Assembly: GCF_036227485.1 (NCBI RefSeq) | Contig: NZ_CP109479.1 | Coordinates: 5,704,001 to 5,768,000, forward strand | Length of the DNA stretch: 64,000 nt | Source: Streptomyces sp. NBC_01451 | Lineage (GTDB): Bacteria; Actinomycetota; Actinomycetes; Streptomycetales; Streptomycetaceae | Direction: 5' to 3' | Shown here: piece by piece, positions 24,932 to 42,591 of the stretch | How positions within the stretch are numbered: the first letter of the stretch is position 1 | Layout: each line of letters opens with the position of its first letter | Program-made: the position numbers and the translations under genes | Notes under the pieces: generated by a model | Seen by the model: the letters and a program-made list of their open reading frames with translations, nothing else | What the model was told of the DNA's origin: nothing | Databases searched by the model: none

Positions 24932-25690
24932 TCAGGCGCGCTGGTCGCCGGGCCGGCCCGGCACCGGAGCGGGGATGGCCGAGGTGTCGAAGCCGCCCGT
25001 GATGATCTGCGCGGCAAGGTCGGACAGGCGCAGGTGACGGGCGCGGGCGTACGACCGGAACGCCTCGAAGGCATCGTCCACGGAGGTGTCCCAGCGTTCC
25101 GCCAGGACACCCTTGACCTGCTCGATCAGGACCCTGCTGGTCAGCGCGCTCTCCAGCTGGTTGTTCTCCACGTGCGACTGCTCCAGCGTGCGCTGCTGGA
25201 GGATCGTGATGGTGGCCACGTCGGCGAGGGCCTGGGCGAGTGCGATGTCGTCGTCGCCGAGGTGGTGCGGGGTGGTCTGGAAGAGGTTGAGGGCGCCGAC
25301 GACCCGGTTGCGCAGGCGCAGCGGGATGGCGTGGGTGGCCACGTATCCCGTCTCGCGGGCCTGTTGGGCGAAGCGTGGCCAGCCGGCCGCGGTCTGCGGC
25401 CGGGTCAGGTCGATGTTCGTGCGGGGGAGGCCGGTGCGGCAGCACTCGACGCAGGGACCCTGGTCGTGCTGGAGCGCGAAGAGTTCCAGCAGCCGGGTGT
25501 GCTCGTCGGAGGCGGCGATGACCTGCAGTTCACCGTGCGCGTCGGCGAGCAGGATCCCGGCCGCCGACACGTCGAGCAGTTCGACGCAGCGTGCGCACAG
25601 CCGGTGCAGCAGGTCGATCACGTCGAAGTCCTCGACGAGGGAGTCCGCGATCTCCACGAAGATCTCGGCCAGACGTCGTTCACGGGCCAT
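24932..25690 (-). CDS. GAF-ANTAR antitermination regulator (cassette 1, type A)
   Basis: The 252-residue protein has a GAF sensor domain at residues 15-150 (LLDVSAAGILLADAHGEL and the Cys-rich GPCVECCRTG) and a C-terminal ANTAR RNA-binding three-helix domain (LIEQVKGVLAERWDTSVDDA, AFRSYARARHLRLSDLA). ANTAR proteins bind paired hexaloop hairpins in nascent RNA and prevent termination. The ATG at 25690 is favoured by a ribosome site at good distance; ATG 25699 would make a 4-bp overlap with the upstream gene. It is closely similar to the protein at 28246-28962. The two neighbouring Cys in the GAF pocket could bind a metal or sense redox. Confidence 0.9.
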   Translation of the reverse strand: MARERRLAEIFVEIADSLVEDFDVIDLLHRLCARCVELLDVSAAGILLADAHGELQVIAASDEHTRLLELFALQHDQGPCVECCRTGLPRTNIDLTRPQTAAGWPRFAQQARETGYVATHAIPLRLRNRVVGALNLFQTTPHHLGDDDIALAQALADVATITILQQRTLEQSHVENNQLESALTSRVLIEQVKGVLAERWDTSVDDAFEAFRSYARARHLRLSDLAAQIITGGFDTSAIPAPVPGRPGDQRA

Positions 25691-28245: not shown

Positions 28246-28962
28246 TCAGGCGTACAGTCCGGCAAAGGATTCGGAGTCGTCGACGAAGGCGCGGGCCACG
28301 TCGACCAGGCGCCGGTTGTGGGAGCGGGCGTAACCGCGCAGCGCGCTGAACGCCTGCTCCATGTCGATGCCCTGGCGTTCCGCGAGCTTTCCCTTGGCCT
28401 GTTCGATAAGGACCCGGCTGTTCAACGCCGTCTGCAGCTGTTCGTTGAGCATCGTGCTGCGATGGACGGTGCGCTGTTGCAGCAGACTGATGGTGGCGAC
28501 GTCGGCCAGGGCCTGGGCGATGAGTGTGGCGGGCGGGTCGAAGGGGCCGGGGGCGGCACGGAAGAGGTTCAGGGCGCCCACGGTGTCGTCCCGCAGACGC
28601 ATGGGCAGGGCCTGGACGGCCCCGAATCCGCTGCGGTGGGCCGCCGTCACGAAGCGCGGCCAGCGGTCGATCTCCCGGGTCAGGTCGTGGACGATCACCG
28701 GGGCGCCGCTGCGGAAGCACTCAAGGCAGGGGCCTTCGTCGTTCTGGAGCTGGAAGAGCTCCAGCAGGCGCACCTGTTCGTCGGAGGCGGCCATGACGCG
28801 GAGCTTGCCGTCCCGGTCGGCGAGCAGCACCCCGGCGGCGCTCGCGTCGAGCATGCCGACACAACGGTCCGTCAGCAGGCGCAGGAAGTCGATGAGGTCG
28901 AAGTCGGCGACCAGGTTGTCGGCCAGTTCGACGAACGTCTTGGCCAGGAGCTGTTGATCCAT
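28246..28962 (-). CDS. GAF-ANTAR antitermination regulator (cassette 2, type A)
   Basis: The 238-residue protein matches the type A protein at 24932-25690 over its whole length: LLADRDGKLRVMAASDEQVRL against LLADAHGELQVIAASDEHTRL, and the Cys-bearing GPCLECFRSG against GPCVECCRTG. It has a GAF sensor domain and a C-terminal ANTAR domain (LIEQAKGKLAERQGIDMEQA). The first Cys of the pair is kept and the second is Phe. ATG 28962 follows GAGGG. It lies 80 bp after the type B gene. Confidence 0.9.
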   Translation of the reverse strand: MDQQLLAKTFVELADNLVADFDLIDFLRLLTDRCVGMLDASAAGVLLADRDGKLRVMAASDEQVRLLELFQLQNDEGPCLECFRSGAPVIVHDLTREIDRWPRFVTAAHRSGFGAVQALPMRLRDDTVGALNLFRAAPGPFDPPATLIAQALADVATISLLQQRTVHRSTMLNEQLQTALNSRVLIEQAKGKLAERQGIDMEQAFSALRGYARSHNRRLVDVARAFVDDSESFAGLYA

Positions 28963-32170: not shown

Positions 32171-32256
32171 AAACCCCAGCTCACGGCCAGACAAGGCAAT
32201 AAGGCTGATGCCCCGCCTCATGCAACCGATGGCTGAAGTCCTGCCACTCGTGCAGC
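32171..32256. repeat. Left island boundary: 86-bp direct repeat (attL-like)
   Basis: Positions 32171-32256 match 41537-41622 at 85 of 86 bases; the first 76 are identical and the one difference is C/T at 32247/41613. Read on the minus strand, this copy encodes the orphan C-terminus LHEWQDFSHRLHEAGHQPYC and LVWP then stop, with no gene in front of it. It is therefore the displaced 3' end of the gene that now ends at 41547. Confidence 0.93.
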
Positions 32257-32363
32257 GAATGGGAGGGGCGGGGGGATGACCTGGGGTTTCTCAAGGGGAT
32301 GTGCATTGACCTGGGAAGACTCCTCTCGGTAGTTCTCACGGGTCAACGCCGTTTCCCAGGCTC

Positions 32364-32383
32364 ATGTGCCCTGGATGTGCCCT
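32364..32383. repeat. Short direct repeats near the left boundary
   Basis: ATGTGCCCT occurs at 32364-32372 and again at 32375-32383, spaced 11 bp. Pairs of about this spacing near an attachment site can be arm-type recombinase or excisionase sites. The evidence is weak. Confidence 0.35.
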
Positions 32384-32790
32384 CACTTGCGCTTCCGCAG
32401 TGCGGCGAGCCACTTGGAGGGGGCCAGGAAGGTCGTAGCCTTCGGCCTCGTTCGGGGCATGGCCTCAGCTGTTGGGTACACAGGTCTGCGGCTGGCGGAG
32501 ATTTCTTTCTCGGTCCACTGCCTAGCCCATGCGACTGTGTTGTTGCGGATCCAGTAGTGGGACTTGCACGGGAAGCTCCAGTTCCCGATCGAGGGGTGCA
32601 GGGAGATCGAGACCCCGTCGAAGGTCAGCTTCCACTCCCGGGGCGCGAGGGGAGTGACGACCTCGTACCCGCAGCCGCAGCAGCACAGGTGGGTGACCAG
32701 GGCGTAGCGGATGGAGATGTACACCACGCCCTGGTCCAACTGCTCCGGAAAGCAATCGACGAACGCATGTGTGATCCGAGCGTCCGTCAC
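32383..32790 (-). CDS. DUF6527-like Cys-rich protein of the ubiquitin-like operon
   Basis: The 135-residue protein has a Cys-rich turn at residues 36-41 (CCCGCG) and a second conserved patch FPCKSHYWIRNNTVAW (Cys75, His78). These are the marks of DUF6527, a small family found next to bacterial ubiquitin-like and ThiF genes. The pattern suggests one bound zinc. Its GTG start overlaps the stop of the E1 gene (GTGA at 32787-32790). The biochemical role is not established as far as I know; a processing or target-recognition function is possible. The tail after residue 95 is basic. Confidence 0.72.
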   Translation of the reverse strand: MTDARITHAFVDCFPEQLDQGVVYISIRYALVTHLCCCGCGYEVVTPLAPREWKLTFDGVSISLHPSIGNWSFPCKSHYWIRNNTVAWARQWTEKEISASRRPVYPTAEAMPRTRPKATTFLAPSKWLAALRKRK

Positions 32791-33971
32791 CCCGTGTCCT
32801 CGTTGGTGAGGACGTTCCCGTCCAATTGGTAGACGCTGTGGTGTTCACGCTCAAGGTCGACGTAGAAACCGTAGACCTTCTTGAACCTCACTACGGCGAG
32901 CGAGGCGTTCAGCGCGTTCAGCTCGGCGATCTGGATGTTGCTGGCGTACGCGTTGTCCTCGTCCGAGTCAGCGAAGGGGATTCGCTGCCGTTCATGGACG
33001 TGGTTGCGCTGGCCGGGCACGCTAGTGGTCACTCGAAGCAGCCCCGTCAGGGAGGTATCGCACACGAGGATGCCCATGCCCACATCGATGAAGGGCATGT
33101 CGTACTCCTCGAGCCGGCCCACCATCGGACGCTTGATCGCTCCCTTGTCGAGCGCGAGGAACACGAAGTCCATCCCGCGCAGTTCCTCGACGGTCGTCTC
33201 GTCCACGAACATCGGATGCGGGACGATGCCGGTCCGCATCTTTCCGTAGAGGTCCGCGTAGTAGTCGACCTTCAACGGCACCCCCTGCAGTTCCTTTTCA
33301 GAGGGCGCACCGGGTGCGCGGAAGGCGTTGTGTTGAAGGAAGCGGTCGCCGTCAAACAGATGGATCCGTGTGACCGGGGTCTTGGCGATCAGATCAAGGA
33401 TGTACGCGCCGGTTCCGCCCAGACCGACGATCGCCACGTTCTCGATCGCGGCCAGACGCTGACTGACGGCCCCGATGCCGGCCCGGCTGGTCGCAGTGTC
33501 GGCGTAGCGGAAAACGGAGTCTTGCGTCTCGGAGGGCACCACCCTGTATGTCTGCGCCGTTGCGTCGGGATCCAGTGTGTGGGCCGGGGAGGAAACGATC
33601 GCCACGTACGAGGTGATCTTCTCGTAGTAGTCGGCATACACGCCCGTCCCGACCGGCTTACTGGAGAACATGCACGCTGTCTGCACGCCCGCCAGCACGT
33701 CGCTGGTAGTCGCGTTGATGAGCTTGCTCAGCGGCTTGCCGGTGGCATCGCAGGGCGTGCCGCCGCTGAAGTGGACCGTGTGGGTGCCCGGGGTCGTGGT
33801 GACGTCGCCGGCCAACGTCAGCTCCGACACCAGGACTCCGAACTGCACCGTACGGTCCGCTGCCACGTACGGGACATGGTGGACGAGTAGGTGACCGTCC
33901 TTCACTTCGACCTCGAAGCCCTCGTCCTGGAGGCGCTTCAGGTCAGGGCTACGACTTGTCAGTGGCGACAA
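32787..33971 (-). CDS. E2-like/E1 fusion: ThiF-family adenylyltransferase
   Basis: The 394-residue protein joins an E2-like N-terminal domain (about residues 8-130) to a ThiF/E1 adenylation domain. The N-terminal part has HTVHFSGGTPCDATGKPL, with Cys74 in the place of an E2-type catalytic cysteine. The E1 part has the nucleotide loop IVGLGGTGAYILDLI (183-188), the acidic HLFDGDRF and the FLALDKGAIKRPMV segment; Cys304 in ILVCDTSLTG is a candidate thioester cysteine. A TTG start at 33971 overlaps the Ubl gene by 23 bp and is the only start near the first conserved residues. It should adenylate the Ubl C-terminus and pass it to Cys74. Family knowledge places such fusions in bacterial ubiquitination-like (Bub/BIL-type) operons. 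Confidence 0.85.
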   Translation of the reverse strand: MSPLTSRSPDLKRLQDEGFEVEVKDGHLLVHHVPYVAADRTVQFGVLVSELTLAGDVTTTPGTHTVHFSGGTPCDATGKPLSKLINATTSDVLAGVQTACMFSSKPVGTGVYADYYEKITSYVAIVSSPAHTLDPDATAQTYRVVPSETQDSVFRYADTATSRAGIGAVSQRLAAIENVAIVGLGGTGAYILDLIAKTPVTRIHLFDGDRFLQHNAFRAPGAPSEKELQGVPLKVDYYADLYGKMRTGIVPHPMFVDETTVEELRGMDFVFLALDKGAIKRPMVGRLEEYDMPFIDVGMGILVCDTSLTGLLRVTTSVPGQRNHVHERQRIPFADSDEDNAYASNIQIAELNALNASLAVVRFKKVYGFYVDLEREHHSVYQLDGNVLTNEDTG

Positions 33972-34221
33972 CGGTGAACACCGTCCCGTTCTTGATCTCG
34001 ACGCTCTCGCCGGTACTCAGGGTGCCGTCGGCGGGCTTCTGGTGGGCGTGCCGGAAGCTGACCGTGATGAGGACGTTCGGGCCCGATGGGACGGGATCGA
34101 GGGCCAGTCGGACCACCTCCTCGAAGGTCAGGGTGTCCTGGTGGACGGTCTTCTCGCGTGCGTTCACGACGATCTTGTAGTCGCGCTGGTGGGCGTTGGG
34201 GGCTGCGGAGACGTCAGGCAT
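33949..34221 (-). CDS. Single-domain ubiquitin-like protein (multiubiquitin family)
   Basis: The 90-residue protein is one beta-grasp domain: YKIVVNAREKTVHQDTLTFE opens with the first hairpin and the fourth-strand region reads NVLITVSFRHA. The middle and end (DGTLSTGESVEIKNGTVFTV) match the multiubiquitin domain, which usually occurs in two or three copies but is single here. The C-terminus is VVATDKS, with no Gly-Gly. GAGAGGAG lies six bases before ATG 34221. It is first in the operon with the E2-E1 fusion and the DUF6527 gene, so it is the probable conjugated modifier. Confidence 0.85.
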   Translation of the reverse strand: MPDVSAAPNAHQRDYKIVVNAREKTVHQDTLTFEEVVRLALDPVPSGPNVLITVSFRHAHQKPADGTLSTGESVEIKNGTVFTVVATDKS

Positions 34222-34298
34222 CTCGGCTCCTCTCGTCGGTTTCATTGAAGCCAGTGAAACCGTACCACGGGTCACCGCAGTCGCACGCGACACGCCTG

Positions 34299-34315
34299 AA
34301 CGGGTGACACCCGTT
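34299..34315. promoter_or_regulatory. Inverted repeat between the Ubl operon and the GHKL gene
   Basis: AACGGGTGACACCCGTT has perfect 7-bp arms and a 3-bp centre. It lies 78 bp before the Ubl start and at or just before the GHKL ATPase start, so one bound dimer could govern both divergent units. A related CGGGTCACC lies nearby at 34268-34276. Confidence 0.6.
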
Positions 34316-34323
34316 CTTGGGCG

Positions 34324-35199
34324 GTGCCCCTGGCATCCTGGTCTGTCGTGCTACTCGAACTCGTCGGACGCCACCCGTTGCTCCGCGCCGACCTGGCTCT
34401 CCATCTCCGCCCCGGCGAGCCCCTCACCGTCGACGCCACGCGGCTGCAGTTCATCAGCCCACTCGACCTCGCCGCCGTATCAGCACTCGCCCAAGCCGCT
34501 TCTGTCATGTCCGGCGAGAGTGTGCTGCGTCTCCCCTCCGATCCTCGTGTCGCCTCCTACTTGCAGCGGATGGACCTCCTCGCCCAGCTTCCCGAGGGCG
34601 CCACTGTCGTCGGGGCCGTTCCGTTCGATGACCGGCGTGACCATCGCGCGACTCTCCTTGAGACCACTCTCCTGACCCCGGAGACCGCCGACGACGTAGG
34701 TGAGCGCATAGGTCTTCTCGCTGTTGCCAACCTTGGTGCGTCTCCGGGTGCTCAGGTCGCCCGCAGTGTCGGTGAGCTGATCGACAATGCCGTCAGTCAT
34801 GGGTGCGGCCCTGGGGGTGCCTATATAGCTGCCCAGACGTACACCGGAAAGACCACTGGAACCCGTCGCTTGGAAGTAGCCATCTGCGACAACGGCATTG
34901 GGGTCCTCGCCCATCTGAGCCGAAACCCCGACCACGCCGACTTGGCGGACAGTGAAACTGCACTCCATAGGGCCCTCCGCCGTGGCATCAGCGGTACCGG
35001 GGGAGGTCGTGGCAACGGGCTGCCCGACCTGCTCAGTCAGGCCGGCGGCACCGGGCCAACCCGGCTTGTCCTGCGAAGTGGGCACGGGCTTGTGCGAGCC
35101 GCCAGACATCTCGCGGGGGCACCTGCCGTGCGCGGCTTCACCACGGGCATGCCCGTGGACGGCACATGGGCATGGCTGAGAGTCTCATTTGCGCCGTAA
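34324..35199 (+). CDS. GHKL ATPase (HATPase_c) with N-terminal STAS-like region
   Basis: The 291-residue protein has an N-terminal STAS-like segment (LTVDATRLQFISPLDLAAVS) and a C-terminal Bergerat-fold ATPase with N box VGELIDNAVSHG, G1 box CDNGIG and G2 box GGGRGNGL. It lacks a phospho-acceptor His domain, so it resembles anti-sigma kinases (SpoIIAB/RsbW) more than sensor kinases. GTG 34324 is the first in-frame start; GTG 34348 is equally plausible. It pairs with the STAS-like protein gene downstream, 45 bp away. Confidence 0.82.
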   Translation: MPLASWSVVLLELVGRHPLLRADLALHLRPGEPLTVDATRLQFISPLDLAAVSALAQAASVMSGESVLRLPSDPRVASYLQRMDLLAQLPEGATVVGAVPFDDRRDHRATLLETTLLTPETADDVGERIGLLAVANLGASPGAQVARSVGELIDNAVSHGCGPGGAYIAAQTYTGKTTGTRRLEVAICDNGIGVLAHLSRNPDHADLADSETALHRALRRGISGTGGGRGNGLPDLLSQAGGTGPTRLVLRSGHGLVRAARHLAGAPAVRGFTTGMPVDGTWAWLRVSFAP

Positions 35200-35244
35200 C
35201 CTCACTATGCTTCAATGCGTTCAATGAAAACGACGAGGCAAGGA

Positions 35245-35781
35245 ATGAGCACCTTCCCCGTACAGCCCTACGGCGAGTTCCTCTTCACGCGCGCCCGAGG
35301 GGCGGCAGCGCGAGCCGACCTGGAAGAGCACCTGCGGCAGTCTGATGTCCTGCCCATGCTGACGATCGACTTCGTCGGCGTCGTTGCGATGACCAACAGC
35401 TTCGCGGACGAGTTCCTCGGCAAGTTCTACACGCTTCTCTCGGCTGAAGGTCATGCCGTGGAAGCCGTGCAGCTCGCAGGATTGAACGAGGAGACCCGGG
35501 ACGCAGTCAACGTGTGTCTGCAAAGGCGCAAACAGTTTGCCGTGGATGCCGAGAGTCACACCCTCCTCGGGGATGCAGAAGTCCTGACGGACACCTATCA
35601 GCGCGCACGCAAACTCAGTGCCTTCCGTGCGGCGGAGCTTGCCGAGGAACTGCACATCTCCTTGCCTAACGCGAACAATCGGCTCAAGCGTCTCCTGGAA
35701 GCGGGAGCACTCCGGCGTGAACGTTCCGCGGGCCCTGACCGAGGCGGCAAGGAGTTCATCTACAGCGTGCCTGCCTTCTGA
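35245..35781 (+). CDS. STAS-like (DUF4325) protein with C-terminal winged helix
   Basis: The 178-residue product has a DUF4325-type STAS-like core (MLTIDFVGVVAMTNSFADEF, then FLGKFYTLL) and a C-terminal wHTH (AELAEELHISLPNANNRLKR, LLEAGALRRE, FIYSVPAF). A DNA-binding STAS partner of the upstream GHKL ATPase makes a self-contained switch: the ATPase could phosphorylate or bind the STAS part and so change DNA binding. GAGG at 35235 is six bases before ATG 35245; ATGs at 35215 and 35224 are in frame too. Confidence 0.82.
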   Translation: MSTFPVQPYGEFLFTRARGAAARADLEEHLRQSDVLPMLTIDFVGVVAMTNSFADEFLGKFYTLLSAEGHAVEAVQLAGLNEETRDAVNVCLQRRKQFAVDAESHTLLGDAEVLTDTYQRARKLSAFRAAELAEELHISLPNANNRLKRLLEAGALRRERSAGPDRGGKEFIYSVPAF

Positions 35782-35856
35782 GGGGCAGCCGGGCCTTCGC
35801 CCCACTCGTGAAGGCTCAGTACGCTGCCGGTCCGCCGAGTTCGTCCGGGCTTCAGC

Positions 35857-35976
35857 GCTGTTGATCTCCAAGCCGTACATGGACGCGTTCGTGTGGGACC
35901 GGCCGCCAGCTGCGGCCCGAGATGCTACGAGTGGCTTCTGAGCGCCGGATTCAACAGCCTCCTCGTCAGGTTCTGA
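35857..35976 (+). pseudogene. Decayed 3' fragment of a YdcF-like (DUF218) gene
   Basis: One frame encodes LLISKPYMDAFVW, close to LLISKPYMERRSY of the intact YdcF-like gene at 40053-40742. A second frame encodes LLSAGFNSLLVRF and stop, matching its terminal LLQAGFDSRLIGA. About 200 bp between the two is missing and the frames differ. It is the remnant of a second copy. Confidence 0.85.
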
Positions 35977-36069
35977 GATCGATGCAGTTCAGGCGGAGGC
36001 GGGAGAGCGGAGCTCATTGCCGATGCGGGTGAGTGGTTCGCGGTGCGGCTGTAGCCCTCTGCATGATCG

Positions 36070-36311
36070 GGCCATGGCCACGCCGATCACCGCCTCTAGG
36101 CCGACCGTGGCGACGGTGAAGAAGGTGGTGTTCCAGAACTGCTCTCCGGCGGAGCCGAAGATGTCGGCGTAGTTCCGCAGCCCCACGAACGACTCGGTGC
36201 CGCTGATGAAACCGGTCGCCGGGTCCAGCCCCTTGGTCCCGTACAGCGACTCCTTGAGCGCCATGAGGTCGGGTAGAGCACGACGATCGTAAGCACCAGG
36301 AGCCTGGCCAC
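36070..36311 (-). pseudogene. Truncated, frameshifted sugar ABC transporter permease fragment
   Basis: In one frame the region begins ARLLVLTIVVLYPT (a first membrane helix). It shifts to ALKESLYGTKGLDPATGFIS, then FVGLRNYADIFG and FWNTTFFTVATVGLEAVIGV, the usual N-terminal 80 residues of a MalF-type permease. The homology stops at VAMA near 36070. It is not related to the intact permeases at 3-5 kb beyond family level. Confidence 0.8.
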
Positions 36312-36480
36312 CCGCCCGGAACCCTACGAGATGGGCCGTGTCGCCAGCGAACTGGCTCTGCGGCTGATCGACGACTCCGACGCGGACCATGAGCAGCACA
36401 TCGTCCTGCCGGCGACGCTGATCCCGCGGACGACCACCGCGCCGCCGCCCGGGACCTCTGGGGAGCGGGACACCGAGTAG
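36304..36480 (+). pseudogene. C-terminal fragment of a LacI-family regulator
   Basis: The plus frame ending in TAG at 36478-36480 reads YEMGRVASELALRLIDD and then HIVLPATLIPRTTTAPPP, the standard last 55 residues of a LacI/PurR-type sugar repressor. No HTH or sensor part remains. With the adjacent divergent permease fragment it represents the scar of a lost carbohydrate locus. Confidence 0.82.
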
Positions 36481-36508
36481 GACCGCACCTCGTGGGGCGG
36501 GCTCCGAG

Positions 36509-36862
36509 TCAGGGGAGAAGGCCGATCCGGATGGCCATGGCACCAAGGGCTTCCTTCGCCGGTGGGTAGATGGCCCGGATACGGGCGAGTTGCTCGTCAC
36601 GGGTGGCGGTGGGGTTGACGTTGGAGGGCCCCTCGCCGTCGAGCAGGGCCTCGAAGCTGGAGTACTCGGTGACCCGTTTGACCGTGACCTTGCAGGTCTC
36701 CTCGGTGCCTTTGATGCGGAAGCGGATGGTGTCGCCGGCGGCGAGGTCGGCGAGGTGGGGGTATTTGACCCGTACCTCGATGGTCTTGGTGCCGGCGGCG
36801 ACGAGGTCGAAGTACTGGCGGTAGAGGTTGAGTTCGCGGACACGCGGGGTGGTGTTGCTCAT
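36509..36862 (-). CDS. ASCH-domain protein
   Basis: The 117-residue protein is an ASCH domain: ELNLYRQYFDLVAAGTKTIE leads into EVRVKYPHLADLAAGDTIRF with the conserved KTIEVR and GD turns. ASCH domains bind RNA or nucleosides, and some remove acyl groups from modified cytidine. Its ATG overlaps the stop of the synthetase-like gene (ATGA at 36859-36862), so the two are made together. A role in recognising the RNA or nucleotide handled by the upstream protein is inferred. Confidence 0.85.
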   Translation of the reverse strand: MSNTTPRVRELNLYRQYFDLVAAGTKTIEVRVKYPHLADLAAGDTIRFRIKGTEETCKVTVKRVTEYSSFEALLDGEGPSNVNPTATRDEQLARIRAIYPPAKEALGAMAIRIGLLP

Positions 36863-37980
36863 AGGGCGGAAATGCTCCTGGGCGCTGGTGCGGTGATGAG
36901 GCGGCCGATCTCGGCTGCGGAGTACGAGCGGAAGAAGTGCCGTGGGTCGGACAGCAGGGTCTCGGCCGTGGCCAGTAGTTGGTCGGCGTATTCGCTGATG
37001 GTGCCGGGCCATTGCCGGGTGTCGAGCATCCAGTCGGCGGCGCCGTCGGGCAAGGGGGCGTGGCCTTCGCGGATGAGGGACTTGGAGAGTTTCGCACCGG
37101 TGTCGGTGACGACTTGTGGGCAGAACAGGCGGGCGGGGAGCTGGGCACGAGTGAGGCCGACGGCTTGAAGGGCTTCGTCGACGAGGAGGGAGCCGAAGAC
37201 CCAGTCGCCGCCCTTGACCATCACGTGCAGAGTTCCACCTGCCCCCGTGCTGTTGAGGGCGAGTTCCTTGACGAGGTTGCGGTACAGGGTGGCCAAGTCG
37301 AGGTAGGCGCCGGCGGTAGGCGTGATGGTGACCTGGTAAGGACCGTGGTGGAGGCAGATGGCATCGACGTCGGCACCTTCTCGGTCGGTGAGGTGCACGC
37401 GCGTGCGTTCGGCGTGCTTCTCGGACCAGCCGCAGCCGGGGTGCGGGCAGGGGATTCGAAGGTGTGGGGTGCCGGTGGAGGGGGCGAGCCACCAGCGGGC
37501 GGCGTCGAGTCGGGGCAGTAGCCGCAGCCAGGTGCGGCGGAAGTGTTCGCCAGATTGCTGCTGGGTGTAGGTCGCGGCACGGTGGGGAATGCCCAGGCGC
37601 CGGGAGAGAGCCGTGAACAGGGGTTGGTACAGGGCGGCGACGAGGTCGGTCAGGGCCTGGTTGCCGAGGGCCTGGGCGTAGGTGCGTTGGTAGCGGTGGC
37701 CGCTGGCCGGGTCTGTGGACACTTCGTACGGGGCGTTGTCGAGGGCGCTGAAGAGGACCTCGGTGGGGATGCCGAAGCGGTCCCGTAGGCGGGCGGCCAT
37801 GGCGAAGGCGAGCGACTGGACGAGCGAGGTGCCGATGTGCGGGGTGCCGTTGATCTGGGTGCCGACGACCAGCACGATCCGCTCGGGCGGAGCGGCCAGG
37901 ATGCGCGGCGTCAGAACGTCCTCGGCGCGGAGAAGGGCGTTGGCGAGGACGGTGTTCGGTGAGACGAGACGGGCCGTCAT
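36859..37980 (-). CDS. Class-I aminoacyl-tRNA-synthetase-like protein (LysRS-I-like)
   Basis: The 373-residue protein has the two signature loops of class I synthetases in the right order: TQINGTPHIGTS (HIGH-like, residues 48-51) and GAKLSKSL (KMSKS-like, 297-301). An inserted zinc-binding module (CPHPGCGWS at 178-183 with CLHHG at 209-213) sits between them, and the KGGDWVFG stretch before the second loop recalls class I LysRS. It is shorter than a full synthetase and no anticodon-binding domain is evident, so it may activate an amino acid for a substrate other than tRNA, or modify tRNA or RNA. The partner ASCH protein supports an RNA-related task. Confidence 0.72.
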   Translation of the reverse strand: MTARLVSPNTVLANALLRAEDVLTPRILAAPPERIVLVVGTQINGTPHIGTSLVQSLAFAMAARLRDRFGIPTEVLFSALDNAPYEVSTDPASGHRYQRTYAQALGNQALTDLVAALYQPLFTALSRRLGIPHRAATYTQQQSGEHFRRTWLRLLPRLDAARWWLAPSTGTPHLRIPCPHPGCGWSEKHAERTRVHLTDREGADVDAICLHHGPYQVTITPTAGAYLDLATLYRNLVKELALNSTGAGGTLHVMVKGGDWVFGSLLVDEALQAVGLTRAQLPARLFCPQVVTDTGAKLSKSLIREGHAPLPDGAADWMLDTRQWPGTISEYADQLLATAETLLSDPRHFFRSYSAAEIGRLITAPAPRSISAL

Positions 37981-37997
37981 GGAATGTCCCCTTGCGG

Positions 37998-38480
37998 TCA
38001 GGCCGGACGGAATGAGGTGTTGCCGGGTTTGACGGGACGTGCCTGGCCCTGGATACCGGCGTCAGAGCGCGCTTCTTCCTGGGCACCGGCGACGTACGGG
38101 TGTTGGAGCGCGGTGCGGAGGGCGTCCGAGTCGGTGAGGGTGTTGTCGTCGGGTAGTTCGCACCAGCCGCCGAACCAGTCGTCGAGCCGCTCCACGCCGG
38201 GTGCGACGAGCCAGGAGTTGGTGGAGAGGTGCCGTACCGGCAGGTCGTCCCAGCTGTCGGCGGTGCTGGTCGCGATGGCGTAGTAGAGGCGCTCGTTGGG
38301 CCCGTCGTCGAGCACCGGGCCGATCGACGCACCGGTGCCGCGCAGGTGGGCCAGGGCCAGAAGACCGGTCTCGGCAGAGGTGCGCACGAGGTCCCAGCCG
38401 TCGCCTACCTTCAGCAGACGCAGTCCGGGCACGTCGCTGACCATGGGTGCGCTGCGCAACGCGTCGCGCATGGACATCAT
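37998..38480 (-). CDS. Hypothetical protein in synthetase-like operon
   Basis: The 160-residue protein is not recognised. It has a short hydrophobic core (GLLALAHLRGTGASIGPVLD, then RLYYAIATSTADSWDDL) and a recurring Trp/Asp-rich segment (VERLDDWFGGWCELPDDNTL). There is no signal peptide. ATGATG at 38480/38477 overlaps the stop of the upstream gene, so it is coupled to it. Proteins like this occur beside XRE regulators in Streptomyces accessory regions. Confidence 0.65.
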   Translation of the reverse strand: MMSMRDALRSAPMVSDVPGLRLLKVGDGWDLVRTSAETGLLALAHLRGTGASIGPVLDDGPNERLYYAIATSTADSWDDLPVRHLSTNSWLVAPGVERLDDWFGGWCELPDDNTLTDSDALRTALQHPYVAGAQEEARSDAGIQGQARPVKPGNTSFRPA

Positions 38481-38893
38481 GTGTCCCCCTGGGGCTGGAG
38501 GTTGGGGCTCGTGCCGCGGGAAGGCGCGGACTCCGTGATCGGCTTGAGGGAGCGGACCACGATCAGCCGGGTGCCCGTTGCTGTTATCTGTTGCTTCCGT
38601 TCGTTGCCGATGCTCCTGGGACCGAGGTGGCTGAGGGCGGGGACCACGGCGCCGTATGTGTCGGGTAGTTCGAGGGTGTCGACCAGCCCGATGAAGGCGG
38701 AGGAGCGGATGGCCACCGTGGTGTCGCGGTCGGTGAAGACGCCACAGAGGGCCAGTTCGTGTCGGCGGCAGTAGTCGGTGAGGCAGTCGACGAGCGCCGC
38801 ATGGCGGACCCGGCCGCCGGTGACGTGTCGTAGGTAGCCGAAGACCTGGGGGAAGGCGACGCGTCGGCGTTCCGTGATGAGTTCGTCGTCCAT
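38477..38893 (-). CDS. Small protein with resolvase-like fold features
   Basis: The 138-residue product recalls the N-terminal domain of serine recombinases: LALCGVFTDRDTTVAIRSSA followed by AFIGLVDTLELPDTYGAVV and VPALSHLGPRSIGNERKQQI. The catalytic Ser motif (YxRxS) is not visible, so it would be inactive as a recombinase. It lies divergent from the XRE-TPR regulator with a promoter gap of about 120 bp. ATG 38893 is chosen; GTG 38899 is alternative. Confidence 0.55.
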   Translation of the reverse strand: MDDELITERRRVAFPQVFGYLRHVTGGRVRHAALVDCLTDYCRRHELALCGVFTDRDTTVAIRSSAFIGLVDTLELPDTYGAVVPALSHLGPRSIGNERKQQITATGTRLIVVRSLKPITESAPSRGTSPNLQPQGDT

Positions 38894-39012
38894 GTCCACA
38901 GCGTCGGTCGGCGTGAAGGGCCTTGAAATGACCTGCTGTTGTACTTCCGTTGCACTTCCCGCCCCACGTCGTCACCGAGAGTGCTTCCATACGTGACGGA
39001 GGGAGGTAGTCC

Positions 39013-40056
39013 GTGGTCAGCGTGCAGCAGTGGACGGGCAGGGAAGCGAGCGCTCTGCGTGCTGCTCTGCGAATGAGCATGCGGGCCTTCGCCGAGCACC
39101 TGGGCGTCGCACTGCGCACGGTGGCCAAGTGGGAGAGCCTGGGAGCCGAGACCCGGCCTCGGCCCGATACCCAGGCGATCCTCGACACCTCGCTCGCTCG
39201 TGCCGATGCTGCCGCCCATGCCCGGTTCGAGGCGGTGCTGTTCCCGGGGCGGAAGTGCGCGCGGTCGGCGGACTACGAGACCTGGACAGAGGACATCGAG
39301 CGCGCCGTAGTCTGCGTCGGCCGCCAGGACTTCTCCTTCGCCGCGACCTTGTTGAACCGCTGGCTGGCGAGCCGTGACGCGCACGGCCTGGATGACAAGG
39401 GCCTTTATCTGTATGGGCGTTCGCTTGTCCTGCTCGGTGATGTGCAACGAGACCAGGGAGCGATCCTCGGCCCGCTGTCCGCCCGGCAGTCCTATCTGAC
39501 CGCGCGCGACATGTTCTCCGAGCTCGCCATCCCGCGCCGGGTCGCCCAGATCGAGCTGTCCCTCGCTGTCGTGCAGGAGATGTCAGGTCAGCTGGATGCC
39601 TCCGCCCGATGGTACGAGCAACTTGCCGCCGACCAGCGGCTCAGCCGACGGGACCGAGCTCGCGCCCGGTTGTGGATCGGTACGGCTCTGAGCAAGGAGG
39701 GCAACAACGAGTACGCCACCAACGTCATGGCTGCTGCCACCCGCGAGTTCGAGGCACTCGGTGAGCCGGAGGACTGGTCCGTGGCACACCAGAAGCTCGC
39801 CCTGGCCCACCGCGGCGCCGGCGACCTGAAGCAGGCCCTGCACTACATCGGCATCGCGCGTACCACCGGCACGGTCGACTCCCCGATGCAGCGGGTGCGG
39901 CTGGACACCGCGTACGGGCACATCCTTCTGTCGGATGCGGCGACCCGGAATGATGGGCTGTCCGTCCTCGACCAGGCGGCACAGGTGGCTCAGCAGTTCG
40001 GGCTGAGCCACCAACTGCGCAGCATCGAGGGCATCCGAAAAGGCCAGCAGAGATGA
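39013..40056 (+). CDS. XRE-family regulator with TPR-like repeats
   Basis: The 347-residue protein has an XRE HTH at residues 10-45 (ALRMSMRAFAEHLGVALRTV, AKWE) and a helical C-terminal part with tetratricopeptide-like pairs (YLYGRSLVLLGDVQRDQGA, QKLALAHRGAGDLKQALHYI). Such HTH-TPR proteins often sense a peptide or metabolite. GTG 39013 follows GGAGGT. Its stop overlaps the ATG of the YdcF-like gene. It probably controls this operon and the divergent one. Confidence 0.85.
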   Translation: MVSVQQWTGREASALRAALRMSMRAFAEHLGVALRTVAKWESLGAETRPRPDTQAILDTSLARADAAAHARFEAVLFPGRKCARSADYETWTEDIERAVVCVGRQDFSFAATLLNRWLASRDAHGLDDKGLYLYGRSLVLLGDVQRDQGAILGPLSARQSYLTARDMFSELAIPRRVAQIELSLAVVQEMSGQLDASARWYEQLAADQRLSRRDRARARLWIGTALSKEGNNEYATNVMAAATREFEALGEPEDWSVAHQKLALAHRGAGDLKQALHYIGIARTTGTVDSPMQRVRLDTAYGHILLSDAATRNDGLSVLDQAAQVAQQFGLSHQLRSIEGIRKGQQR

Positions 40057-40742
40057 GCCAGGGAGTGCCAGTGCCGGAGCACCAGCAACGTCAGATCACC
40101 GACGAGCAGTTCCACGACGCGACGTTGATCTGGAACTACCACCAGATGGGACATGAGGAGCGCCCCTGCTCGGCGGCGATCGGCCTGGGCAGTCACGACC
40201 TCGGGGTGGCCACGACGGCCGCCGACCTCTACCGCGTCGGCCTCTTCCCCGTCGTGGTGTTCAGCGGCGGCAACAGCTCCACCACGCGTGCCCGCTTCCC
40301 GCGCGGCGAGGCCGTCCACTACCGCGAGCACGTGCTCGCCCTGGGCGTTCCGGACGAGGCGATCCTGGTGGAACCGAAGGCGGCGAACACCGGCCAGAAC
40401 ATCACCTTCTCCCGCGAGCTGCTGGCCGACGCAGGCGTGGAGGTGGAGTCGCTTCTGCTGATCTCCAAGCCGTACATGGAGCGCCGCTCGTACGCGACGT
40501 GCCGCAAATTGTGGCCTGAGGCCGAGGTCGTCTGCGCCTCCGAGCCGCTGGAACTGGACGACTACATCAAGTCCATCGGTGACGAAAAGCTCGTCGTCGA
40601 CATGCTCGTCGGCGACCTGCAACGGGTGATCGAGTACCCGAAGCTCGGCTTCGCCGTCGAGCAGGACGTACCGAAGGATGTCCATGACGCCTACAAGCGC
40701 CTTCTACAGGCCGGATTCGACAGCCGCCTCATCGGCGCCTGA
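40053..40742 (+). CDS. YdcF family (DUF218) protein
   Basis: The 229-residue protein has the DUF218 core: an AAIGLGSHDLGVATTAADLY loop, FPVVVFSGGNS, the Arg-rich turn and ILVEPKAANTGQNITFSREL with the conserved Glu, Asn and Thr. LLISKPYMERRSY follows. The fold binds nucleotide-like or lipid-linked substrates; SanA/YdcF relatives act in envelope metabolism. There is no membrane segment here, so it is cytoplasmic. It overlaps the XRE gene by 4 bp. A decayed copy lies at 35857-35976. Confidence 0.86.
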   Translation: MSQGVPVPEHQQRQITDEQFHDATLIWNYHQMGHEERPCSAAIGLGSHDLGVATTAADLYRVGLFPVVVFSGGNSSTTRARFPRGEAVHYREHVLALGVPDEAILVEPKAANTGQNITFSRELLADAGVEVESLLLISKPYMERRSYATCRKLWPEAEVVCASEPLELDDYIKSIGDEKLVVDMLVGDLQRVIEYPKLGFAVEQDVPKDVHDAYKRLLQAGFDSRLIGA

Positions 40743-41568
40743 CCCGCTGCGTACCGGCGCACGGAACGGGGTGTGCGCCATCCACCAGCCGAATCTCTTC
40801 CCGAGATTGTCCACGCTGGCCAAGCTGTACGCCGCCGACCGGTGGATCGTCCTGGACAACGTGCAGTTCGCTCGGCGGGACTACCAGCACCGCACCCGGC
40901 TCGCTGCGCTGGACGCCCCGGACCGGCAGCAGTGGCTCACACTCCCCGTCAATCTGCCTCAGGGGCGCCCGACCCTGATCAGCCAGGCCCTGCTTGCCGA
41001 GCCCAGCCGCTCCCGGCGCACAGCGGAGCCGCTCATTCGCCAGTACTACGGTCGTAGCCGTCACTGGCCTGTCGTACGCACCGTTCTCGACACTGTGCTC
41101 GCGAGGCTTGCCGACACGGACAGCGTGGCTGACATCGCAGAGACCTCCACTCGTGTCCTGCTCGACAGCCTCGGCTGGCGGGGAGAGGTGTTGTACGGCA
41201 GCACCTTCCCCGCGAGACCTGGCAGGTCCGCGCGTCTTGCAGATCTCGCTCTCGCGACGGGCAGCACGCACTATCTCTGCGGCTCGGGCGGCATGCGCTA
41301 TCTCGACCCCGAGCCGTTCGGCGCCCATGGCATTCCGGTCCTGCCCTTCCGCACCCCTGTGGATGACGGGGACCCGCTCTGGCGTTTGGCCCGCAGGGTG
41401 AGCAGCCTCTGGGCGCTCAGCTCGATCGGCCCGCAGGCACTCGCCGCTCGGATGAATGTCGGCCGACAGGCCCGATCAGGCCCGATTCCCGGGTACGGAA
41501 AAGGGCGAGGCCCGAAGACCCCGCCCGAAACCACCGAAACCCCAGCTCACGGCCAGACAAGGCAATAA
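40684..41568 (+). CDS. WbqC-like family protein
   Basis: The 294-residue product matches WbqC: CAIHQPNLFPRLSTLAKLYA, WIVLDNVQFARRDYQHRTRL, then LTLPVNLPQ and a late GGMRYLDPEPFG. The family accompanies sugar or aminotransferase pathways and its reaction is unsettled. GAAGG lies six bases before ATG 40684, which gives a 59-bp overlap with the YdcF-like gene; GTG 40771 would begin right at the conserved core. Its last ten codons and stop lie inside the right attachment repeat, so the tail was set by integration. Confidence 0.85.
   Translation: MTPTSAFYRPDSTAASSAPDPLRTGARNGVCAIHQPNLFPRLSTLAKLYAADRWIVLDNVQFARRDYQHRTRLAALDAPDRQQWLTLPVNLPQGRPTLISQALLAEPSRSRRTAEPLIRQYYGRSRHWPVVRTVLDTVLARLADTDSVADIAETSTRVLLDSLGWRGEVLYGSTFPARPGRSARLADLALATGSTHYLCGSGGMRYLDPEPFGAHGIPVLPFRTPVDDGDPLWRLARRVSSLWALSSIGPQALAARMNVGRQARSGPIPGYGKGRGPKTPPETTETPAHGQTRQ
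41499..41526 (-). terminator. Terminator carried by the island, after the target gene
   Basis: On the minus strand a 10-bp stem (GGGCGGGGTC/GGCCTCGCCC with two G-T pairs) with a TTCG loop is followed by TTTT. It lies 21 bp past the stop of the gene ending at 41547. It sits in the position held by the hairpin at 32133-32154 on the other side of the island and runs through the 3' end of the WbqC-like frame. Confidence 0.8.
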
Positions 41569-41622
41569 GGCTGATGCCCCGCCTCATGCAACCGATGGCT
41601 GAAGTCCTGCCATTCGTGCAGC
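41537..41622. repeat. Right island boundary: 86-bp direct repeat (attR-like)
   Basis: This copy forms the functional last 25 codons, stop codon and 10 bp of trailer of the gene at 41547-42197 (minus). Its twin lies at 32171-32256, exactly 9366 bp away. The copies flank the ubiquitin-like and synthetase-like cargo, so an excised circle would contain one copy and the empty chromosome would keep the other. Confidence 0.93.
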
Positions 41623-42197
41623 AGTTGGTACACGTTGAACGCGTCTCTCGGCCCCCCGCGATCCGGCACCGTGGACCAGATGAACGCCGCCGCGCCCACC
41701 GCTTCCTCGCCTATGCCGCGCAGGGGGTCGACGACGGTCATCGGGAGTTTCACGACCGCGTAGTCGGGGTGCAGGACGACGAGTTCCAGCGGGGGCACCT
41801 TGTTGAGGGGGACGCCCTCGATGCCCGTGAGGACCATCGCGGCCATCGTCTCGGGCTTGATCTTGGTGAACATGCCGTTCATGCCGAGTTCGTCGCCGCC
41901 GAGTTCCTCGGGACGCATCGAGATCGGGACGCGGGCTGCCGTGGCGCCGTCCGGCGCGCCGAAGTATTTGTACGTCACCCCCACCCGACCACCATTCCGA
42001 CCGCCGTTCCCGCTCGCCGCCCGGAGTCGCTCGACCCTCCGGTCGACGCTCTCGGGCACACCGTTCGATCCCATGCCGAGGCCGGGAACCGTGCCCTGGC
42101 CAGGAACCATGCCCTGACCCGCACCCGTGCCCTGCCCGGGGCCCATCCCCTGGGCCTGTGCCTGCCGTGCCGCTTCTGCCGCTGCCGCTTCCTCCAT
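41547..42197 (-). CDS. Conserved hypothetical protein; 3' end used as integration site
   Basis: The 216-residue protein has a Gly/Gln/Met low-complexity head (GQGMGPGQGTGAGQG and similar), then a conserved core with VTYKYFGAPDGATAARVPIS, GMFTKIKPETMAAMVLTGIE and VVLHPDYAVVKLPMTVVDPL. The tail is YQLLHEWQDFSHRLHEAGHQ then PYCLVWP. The family is not recognised; it lies next to hemL. ATG 42197 is chosen; an upstream in-frame ATG at 42278 would add 27 mostly basic residues. Integration kept the reading frame and supplied a new terminator. Confidence 0.75.
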   Translation of the reverse strand: MEEAAAAEAARQAQAQGMGPGQGTGAGQGMVPGQGTVPGLGMGSNGVPESVDRRVERLRAASGNGGRNGGRVGVTYKYFGAPDGATAARVPISMRPEELGGDELGMNGMFTKIKPETMAAMVLTGIEGVPLNKVPPLELVVLHPDYAVVKLPMTVVDPLRGIGEEAVGAAAFIWSTVPDRGGPRDAFNVYQLLHEWQDFSHRLHEAGHQPYCLVWP

Positions 42198-42591
42198 GTC
42201 GCGTCGGTGCCTTCCCCGCCGGGCACGTCGAGGACCCAGGTCGTCAGTCCCCTCGCCCAGTCCGCCACCGCGATGCATATCTCCACCCGACTGCTGTTCT
42301 AGGACGCGCGAGCCCCGTCGCGCAACCCGATCATCGTGTCAGTGACCTCCCCCACGTCCGCCCGCCGAAACGTGCGTTGAAACACCTGTCCGCAGGATCT
42401 TCGCAGCCTCTGAACACCATCGTCCGCCCATCGTCCATATGTACGGCCCGATGAGCTGTGTGTCTCTGTGTCCGTGTGTGTGTCCGGTCCCAGTTTCGCA
42501 GACGGGTGGGGCCGACGCCCCCCTCCCGGGCCCCCTACCCTGAGGGGGTCACTGGCAATCGGAGCCCGAGAAGTCGGAGAAGTCGCAGGTC
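42198..42591. other. Intergenic 394 bp before hemL
   Basis: There is no supported gene. A GT-rich run lies at about 42455-42485 and the hemL promoter should be between there and the start codon. No clear operator was seen. Confidence 0.6.

What the first reader, a model, noticed from the sequence alone, without database searches (positions are those of the whole stretch)
32383..34221. Compact three-gene ubiquitin-like conjugation operon (Ubl, E2-E1 fusion, DUF6527) in a Streptomyces island
Seen: three genes with 23-bp and 4-bp overlaps encode a 90-residue beta-grasp protein of the multiubiquitin family, a ThiF/E1 protein with an E2-like N-terminal domain (Cys74 in GTPC, GLGGTG nucleotide loop at 183-188), and a Cys-rich DUF6527-like protein. 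Known: such sets belong to bacterial ubiquitination-like (Bub/BIL type) operons, some relatives of which act in phage defence. Inference: this is a minimal form, with one Ubl domain and no recognisable separate deubiquitinase, and its targets are unknown.
Basis: partly seen in the sequence, partly recalled or inferred. Interest (0 to 1): 0.9.

Follow-up and report, generated by a model that had tools for sequence, protein, structure and literature searches.

The report
Damage-inducible minimal bacterial ubiquitin-like operon
A Streptomyces genomic island carries a three-gene ubiquitin-like tagging operon of a widespread but apparently untested type, next to a regulator pair that in related strains faces anti-phage (CBASS) genes, so it is probably a stress- or phage-triggered defence pathway.

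Summary
The three genes are as described: a 90-aa Ubl (Multi_ubiq), a DUF6791-ThiF E1 and DUF6527, with 23- and 4-bp overlaps. They fit operon type 6e of Iyer et al. 2006 ('domain X' in place of JAB) and are a sister of Bub operons: the nearest solved E1 is Citrobacter BubCD, and Bub operons also carry DUF6527. E1 matches occur in 115 of 72,556 plasmids but only 10 of 392 Streptomyces. (2) A 9.4-kb island between 86-bp direct repeats. (3) The Ubl ends in T-x-[KRQ]-Ser, not Gly, in 25 of 25 readable loci (28 examined). E2-likeness of the N-terminal domain is unproven, and Cys74 is replaced in 7 of 145 homologues. Known kind, new variant; function untested.

The parts
33949..34221 (-). Ubl gene, 90 aa, one Multi_ubiq domain (residues 15-88), C-terminus ...ATDKS
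   Evidence: PDB 9cd2 multi-ubiquitin protein matched at E 7e-5, also ending TDKS
32787..33971 (-). DUF6791-ThiF (E1-like) protein, 394 aa; TTG start; overlaps the Ubl gene by 23 bp
33495..33947 (-). DUF6791 domain (residues 9-159): helix, four longer strands, loop with C74, two short strands, long helix in the model; possible E2-like domain
   Evidence: model pLDDT 92.5; relation to E2 not significant
33075..33458 (-). ThiF/E1 adenylation domain (residues 172-299; G183, G185, G188, D209, R218, K234 in 129 of 129, D275 in 128)
33750..33752 (-). Cys74 codon of the E1 protein
   Evidence: C in 138 of 145 homologues
32383..32790 (-). DUF6527 protein, 135 aa; H34, C36, C38, C40, S67, N70, C75, S77, H78 invariant in the 121 closest sequences aligned
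34237..34262 (.). Predicted CapS operator CGGTTTCA-N10-TGAAACCG in the divergent promoter region
34324..35199 (+). CapK-like protein, 291 aa, STAS-like plus GHKL kinase domain, no HTH
35215..35781 (+). CapS-like protein, 188 aa, STAS-like plus winged HTH (true start may be the ATG at 35224); S62 aligns with the phosphorylated S54 of Enterobacter roggenkampii CapS
35210..35229 (.). Second predicted CapS site (CTTCA-N10-TGAAA, one mismatch) at the capK-capS junction; overlaps possible first codons of capS
32171..32256 (.). Direct repeat, left island end
41537..41622 (.). Direct repeat, right island end, overlapping the 3' end of an ORF (41547-42278, minus strand) conserved in relatives

Best explanation
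A DNA-damage- or infection-inducible ubiquitin-like conjugation cassette, sister to the Bub operons, carried on a 9.4-kb island. In resting cells a CapS dimer sits on the TTTCA-N10-TGAAA site between the divergent genes and holds the Ubl operon (and its own gene) down. A stress signal activates the CapK-like kinase, CapS is phosphorylated at S62 and leaves the DNA, and the operon is expressed. The E1 half adenylates the free C-terminal Ser90 of the Ubl and, without any conserved E1 cysteine, passes it to the DUF6791 domain, which does the E2 job and attaches it to targets; DUF6527 is a metal-binding partner that chooses substrates or edits the tag. Shown: gene content, homology, conservation of the regulator and its site, exchange of the same regulator with CBASS genes. 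Inferred: repression and induction, adenylation, conjugation, the roles of DUF6791 and DUF6527, defence.
Against: No conjugation, phage-defence or induction data for this branch in anything I could read; [quoted passage not shown] E2 fold of DUF6791 not demonstrated. The CapK here lacks the HTH and the ssDNA-binding Trp68 of the studied CapK, so the signal may differ. STAS and GHKL Pfam scores in CapK, and the STAS-like DUF4325 score in CapS, are below curated cut-offs. Only 4 distinct Streptomyces loci pair this operon with CapK-CapS (window, G168, G364, NRRL F-525); the other 7 of the 10 Streptomyces genomes with DUF6791 have no match to this capS anywhere. 6 of the 17 loci examined show none of the three regulator kinds.
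Confidence: 0.6

Rival explanations
1. Sulfur-carrier or peptide-modification system: the E1 adenylates the Ubl or another substrate for a small-molecule or peptide reaction (as ThiF-ThiS, MccB or PaaA do), not for protein tagging.
Against: First by sequence profile and by Foldseek E-value is BubCD; the operon's partners are Multi_ubiq and DUF6527, with no biosynthetic gene among the three; regulators of the kinds reported at immune operons.
Confidence: 0.15
2. Non-cysteine conjugation: the DUF6791 domain is not a thioester E2. The tag is transferred directly from the acyl-adenylate or through a Ser or His centre (H64, S103), with Cys74 only helpful.
For: H64, P73 and S103 are kept in 145 of 145 while C74 is H, S or R in 7 of 145; no other Cys of the protein reaches 90% conservation in 129 sequences.
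Against: C74 is kept in 138 of 145, including the window; the seven exceptions could be inactive or have moved the cysteine.
Confidence: 0.3
3. Stress-response or toxin-like cassette: it serves island stability or general genotoxic stress rather than phage defence.
For: CapK/CapS-like proteins also control a VapC toxin system (PMC13373217, passages); 70% of multiubiquitin proteins lie by HTH-DUF955 loci read as toxin-antitoxin pairs (PMC4963859, passages).
Against: HTH plus M78-type peptidase is also the make-up of the CapH-CapP immune regulators (the M78 identity of CapP is recalled); exchange with CBASS genes in Streptomyces.
Confidence: 0.25

Closest known systems
Operon type 6e with 'domain X' (Iyer, Burroughs, Aravind 2006, PMC1779556; section 14 and passages seen)
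   Same: Ubl protein with one to three domains, E1 with an uncharacterised N-terminal domain in place of JAB, small Cys-rich metal-binding protein Y; sporadic distribution. 'Fsp.' (read as Frankia) is marked as domain-X form.
   Different: That paper left domain X unassigned and gave Y the signature C-x3-C-x(35-38)-H-x2-C; here the order is C-x3-C-x34-C-x2-H. The Ser tail and the CapK-CapS link were not in the passages read.
Bub operons (BubA, BubB, BubCD; Ye et al. 2026 and Gong et al. 2025 seen only as citations)
   Same: Multi_ubiq Ubl, related E1, DUF6527 annotated after E1 in 6 of 9 JAB-type loci fetched, CapK-CapS, WYL or HTH-peptidase genes nearby
   Different: No JAB and no Prok-E2_E domain; Ubl ends in Ser, whereas JAB-type Ubls end ...TTTEG (2 of 3 free ones) or run ...NNG into the fused E2 (4 of 6)
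Type II CBASS Cap2
   Same: E1 with an N-terminal extra domain; in other Streptomyces the same CapK-CapS and operator stand before CBASS genes
   Different: Best PADLOC E1-E2 match E 7e-6, confined to residues 151-218; the window's gene facing capK is a Ubl, not a cyclase
CapK-CapS (EMBO J 2026, PMC13373217; section 7 and passages seen)
   Same: capK followed by capS, STAS-GHKL and STAS-wHTH, phospho-Ser, wide palindrome with N10 spacing, two sites
   Different: No HTH, no W68; half-site TTTCA/TGAAA instead of TTAA; divergent to the operon rather than upstream in the same direction

Membership tests
Operon type 6e, domain-X form (Iyer 2006) | Ubl protein with one to three domains of this family | tested here: met
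   PF14452 E 3e-14
Operon type 6e, domain-X form (Iyer 2006) | E1 with an N-terminal domain other than JAB | tested here: met
   PF20590 then PF00899; no JAB family at E<=1. That DUF6791 is Iyer's domain X is my inference.
Operon type 6e, domain-X form (Iyer 2006) | Cys-rich metal-binding protein Y | tested here: met
   PF20137; the Synechocystis 6803 pSYSX locus has DUF6527 after E1, but I did not match it to the paper's example sll6052 by locus tag, and residue order differs from the published signature.
Bub operon proper | JAB peptidase domain on or beside the E1 | tested here: not met
   (none in the three proteins) against (present in both JAB-type loci scanned)
Bub operon proper | Prok-E2_E (BubB) domain | tested here: not met
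   none at E<=1; PF14462 E 6.5e-34 and 1.8e-34 in the JAB-type loci
Bub operon proper | BubC-like E1 | tested here: met
BIL (BilABCD) | Separate E2 and deubiquitinase genes beside Ubl and E1 (recalled) | tested here: not met
   no E2 or JAB family in the three proteins; capK on one side and the island end 127 bp beyond DUF6527 on the other. No BIL-specific model was named.
Type II CBASS | CD-NTase beside an E2-E1 Cap2 | tested here: not met
   no cyclase among the three proteins; PADLOC E1-E2 match weak and partial
E2/UBC fold for DUF6791 | UBC fold with catalytic Cys | tested here: inconclusive
   hhalign P 0.022 and 0.035, controls 0.11-0.69, positive control 0.066; fold search covered only 146-394; order of elements in the model is compatible
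CapS | STAS-wHTH with conserved phospho-Ser and DNA-binding residues | tested here: met
   STAS-like Pfam score below cut-off
CapK | STAS-GHKL kinase with active-site Asn, gene directly before capS | tested here: met
   Pfam scores below cut-offs
CapK | N-terminal HTH and ssDNA-binding Trp68 | tested here: not met
   both absent in the alignment
CapK-CapS control | DNA-damage-induced derepression of the adjacent operon | not testable with these tools
   needs a reporter experiment

The most novel reading that the evidence does not exclude
A ubiquitin-like system that breaks two textbook rules: the modifier is activated through a C-terminal serine (T-x-[KRQ]-S) instead of glycine, and transfer needs no conserved cysteine in either the E1 or the E2-like domain (H64/S103 centre, Cys74 dispensable), while one regulator-operator module is freely exchanged between this pathway and CBASS.
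Probability: 0.25. Interest if true: 0.85.

Novelty: new variant of a known kind. Interest (0 to 1): 0.62.

Why it matters
One search returned 7,977 relatives of this E1, a number limited by the candidate cap, yet the branch appears untested: DUF6791 and DUF6527 gave no paper in the open library. The CapK-CapS link gives a concrete prediction of when the pathway switches on, and the exchange with CBASS in the same genus argues for an immune role of a ubiquitin-like pathway so far only predicted. If a serine-ended modifier is really conjugated, it widens the chemistry known for ubiquitin-like proteins. DUF6527 copies in three phages raise the question of viral counter-measures.

Full report
Observation. 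The window lies at 5,704,001-5,768,000 of a 10.27-Mb single-contig genome. The three minus-strand genes are at the stated coordinates with the stated overlaps. Pfam places the 90-aa protein in Multi_ubiq (E 3e-14), the 394-aa protein in DUF6791 (residues 9-159, E 2.4e-56) plus ThiF (172-299, E 5.6e-8), and the 135-aa protein in DUF6527 (E 3.3e-25). NCBIfam names the middle protein only as a hypothetical protein (PRK06153.1-4, E 4.9e-159). The Ubl matches the solved ZDHYS365 multi-ubiquitin protein 9cd2 (E 7e-5 by sequence, 1.4e-16 by profile), which ends in the same TDKS.

Distribution. One search returned 7,977 E1 relatives among 7,999 scored candidates, a capped number. Plasmids: 115 of 72,556 records, by tally mostly Acinetobacter (45) and rhizobia. 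Streptomyces: 10 of 392 genomes; Actinomycetota sample: 3 of 396; both counts include the window's own genome. Phage records: none for E1, but DUF6527 in 3 of 50,697, in 89-104-aa proteins that keep most of the Cys/Ser/His pattern. The order Ubl-E1-DUF6527 recurs across phyla.

The regulator. A pair of genes starts 102 bp from the Ubl gene on the other strand: 34324-35199 (STAS-like plus GHKL) and 35215-35781 (STAS-like plus winged HTH). The second one's best PDB match is 9z71 (E 1.1e-4), the CapS of Enterobacter roggenkampii (PMC13373217; section 7 and passages seen). The paper gives that CapS the accession WP_001567865.1, which I found before a JAB-type operon on a Salmonella plasmid. Against it the window protein gives 47% over 47 aa (E 3e-10), and the alignment keeps the phosphorylated serine (S54, here S62) and the DNA-binding residues N145, K151, G169 and G170. 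The kinase matches capK at 27% over 158 aa (E 2e-8) and keeps the active-site Asn (N218, here N155), but lacks the HTH and the ssDNA-contacting Trp68. Pfam scores for STAS and GHKL are below the curated cut-offs.

The operator. Between the divergent genes lies CGGTTTCA-N10-TGAAACCG (34237-34262), conserved in relatives while the flanks drift. TTTCA-N10-TGAAA occurs once in the whole genome. With the wider pattern CGNTTTCANTGANNNCANTGAAANCG, zero-mismatch sites occur in 5 of 392 Streptomyces genomes, and all five are capK-capS loci; two more genomes have two-mismatch sites without capS. The N10 spacing is that of the published CapS wide palindrome (TTAA-N10-TTAA). A second site with one mismatch lies at the capK-capS junction (35210-35229; two sites in the window against 0.07 expected, none of 100 shuffles with two). 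In the seven loci compared, this stretch has one (4) or two (3) mismatches to the core; since it may overlap the first capS codons, protein coding could also keep it. E. roggenkampii CapS likewise has two sites.

Exchange with CBASS. Seven of 392 Streptomyces genomes carry this capS. In G000 (window), G168 and G364 it stands with the Ubl operon, as also in Streptomyces sp. NRRL F-525. In G119 and G224 it faces a CD-NTase and a Cap2-type E1-E2 gene, with an HNH-SAVED gene convergent to them, and in G022 a CD-NTase gene (PADLOC E 1.2e-139 or better for seven of the eight proteins scanned, no match for the eighth). G119 and G224 have the same operator and G022 a one-mismatch version. G106 holds only a shortened capS. 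Against a fixed link: the 7 other Streptomyces genomes with DUF6791 have no match to this capS. Elsewhere the DUF6791 operon has other neighbours: of 17 loci outside the window examined (L002-L010, L024-L030, L044), 2 have capK-capS, 7 an HTH and/or M78 (ImmA/IrrE) peptidase gene, 2 a WYL gene, and 6 none of these. CapH-CapP (HTH and peptidase) and CapW (WYL) are reported as DNA-damage-responsive controllers of Bub operons too (PMC13373217). I tested this likeness only at the level of Pfam domains, and for L044 by its annotation.

The tail. The last four Ubl residues read T-x-[K/R/Q]-S in all 25 loci whose tail was readable (28 examined, window included); T87 and S90 are invariant in the 71-sequence alignment. 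Of three free JAB-type Ubls, two end in ...KKTTTEG and the third (L047) reads on past ...STEG; of six fused ones, four run ...NNG into the E2 part. The overlapping E1 start does not explain the invariance (see Tried and rejected). Whether the serine is adenylated, or the tail is trimmed first, is unknown.

The active site. H64, P73 and S103 are kept in 145 of 145 homologues; C74 is C in 138, H in 3, S in 2, R in 2. Of the seven exceptions, L006, L008 and L010 have Ubl and DUF6527 matches beside them, and L014 and L023 have a DUF6527 match and a readable Ubl tail; for the other two, P0025 and P0026, I have no neighbourhood. No other cysteine of the protein reaches 90% conservation, so no E1 thioester is expected. 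The N-terminal part has an E2-compatible order of elements in the model (helix, four strands, loop with C74, two short strands, long helix), but the sequence-profile test is only suggestive and the fold test did not cover this part.

Island. An 86-bp direct repeat (99% identical) lies at 32171-32256 and 41537-41622, the only two copies in the genome. The right copy overlaps the 3' end of an ORF conserved in many of the relatives searched, a layout typical of site-specific integration (inference). No match to window about 32.39-36.05 kb is among those listed for 30 relatives, though the list was cut short. G106 has the same anchor gene about 6 kb from its capS remnant. I noticed no integrase among the ORFs of 220 aa or more listed at 35.7-42.5 kb, but ran no integrase search.

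Literature limits. Ye et al. 2026 and Gong et al. 2025 on Bub are not held; I saw only citations and other papers' sentences about them. DUF6791 and DUF6527 return no paper; subscription papers and preprints may say more. Bub operons were said in 2026 not to have been shown to protect against phage (PMC13373217).

Verdict. Real, correctly read at gene level, a new variant of a known kind. The strongest new result is the regulatory one: the same CapK-CapS pair and operator serve CBASS genes and this Ubl operon within one genus. The boldest open point is the serine-ended modifier with a non-essential cysteine.

Noticed in passing
L053 (7424-9966), L055 (1389-7051), L056 (7734-13267): In three other Streptomyces genomes the same CapK-CapS pair and operator (one mismatch in the core in L053) face CBASS genes: a CD-NTase, with Cap2 and a convergent HNH-SAVED gene shown in two of them.
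   Followed up: yes
L031 4974-5243, L032 4968-5282, L033 5001-5285: DUF6527 homologues in three phages without an E1 match (Erwinia phage pEa_SNUABM_29, Burkholderia phage FLC9, Dulem virus 40); possible counter-defence or unrelated use.
   Followed up: partly
window 32171-41622: The island also holds ORFs with ASCH (36512-36862 minus), DUF218 (40053-40742 plus) and WbqC (40678-41568 plus) domains, one resembling an aminoacyl-tRNA synthetase by eye (36859-37980 minus, no Pfam match) and one with an HTH-like start by eye (39013-40056 plus, no Pfam match).
   Followed up: partly
L025, L026, L027, L028: On Leptolyngbya, Mesorhizobium, Klebsiella and Acinetobacter plasmids a UvrD-type helicase gene lies upstream of the DUF6791 operon (an IS element lies between in Acinetobacter); in Leptolyngbya a caspase-family gene lies downstream, in Klebsiella Tn7-like transposition genes.
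   Followed up: no
window 25425-25672 and 28700-28947: 248-nt direct repeat at 74% identity, perhaps paralogous genes.
   Followed up: no
L051 4560-6053: A JAB-type locus of Pseudosulfitobacter lies near a gene annotated as anti-phage dCTP deaminase.
   Followed up: no
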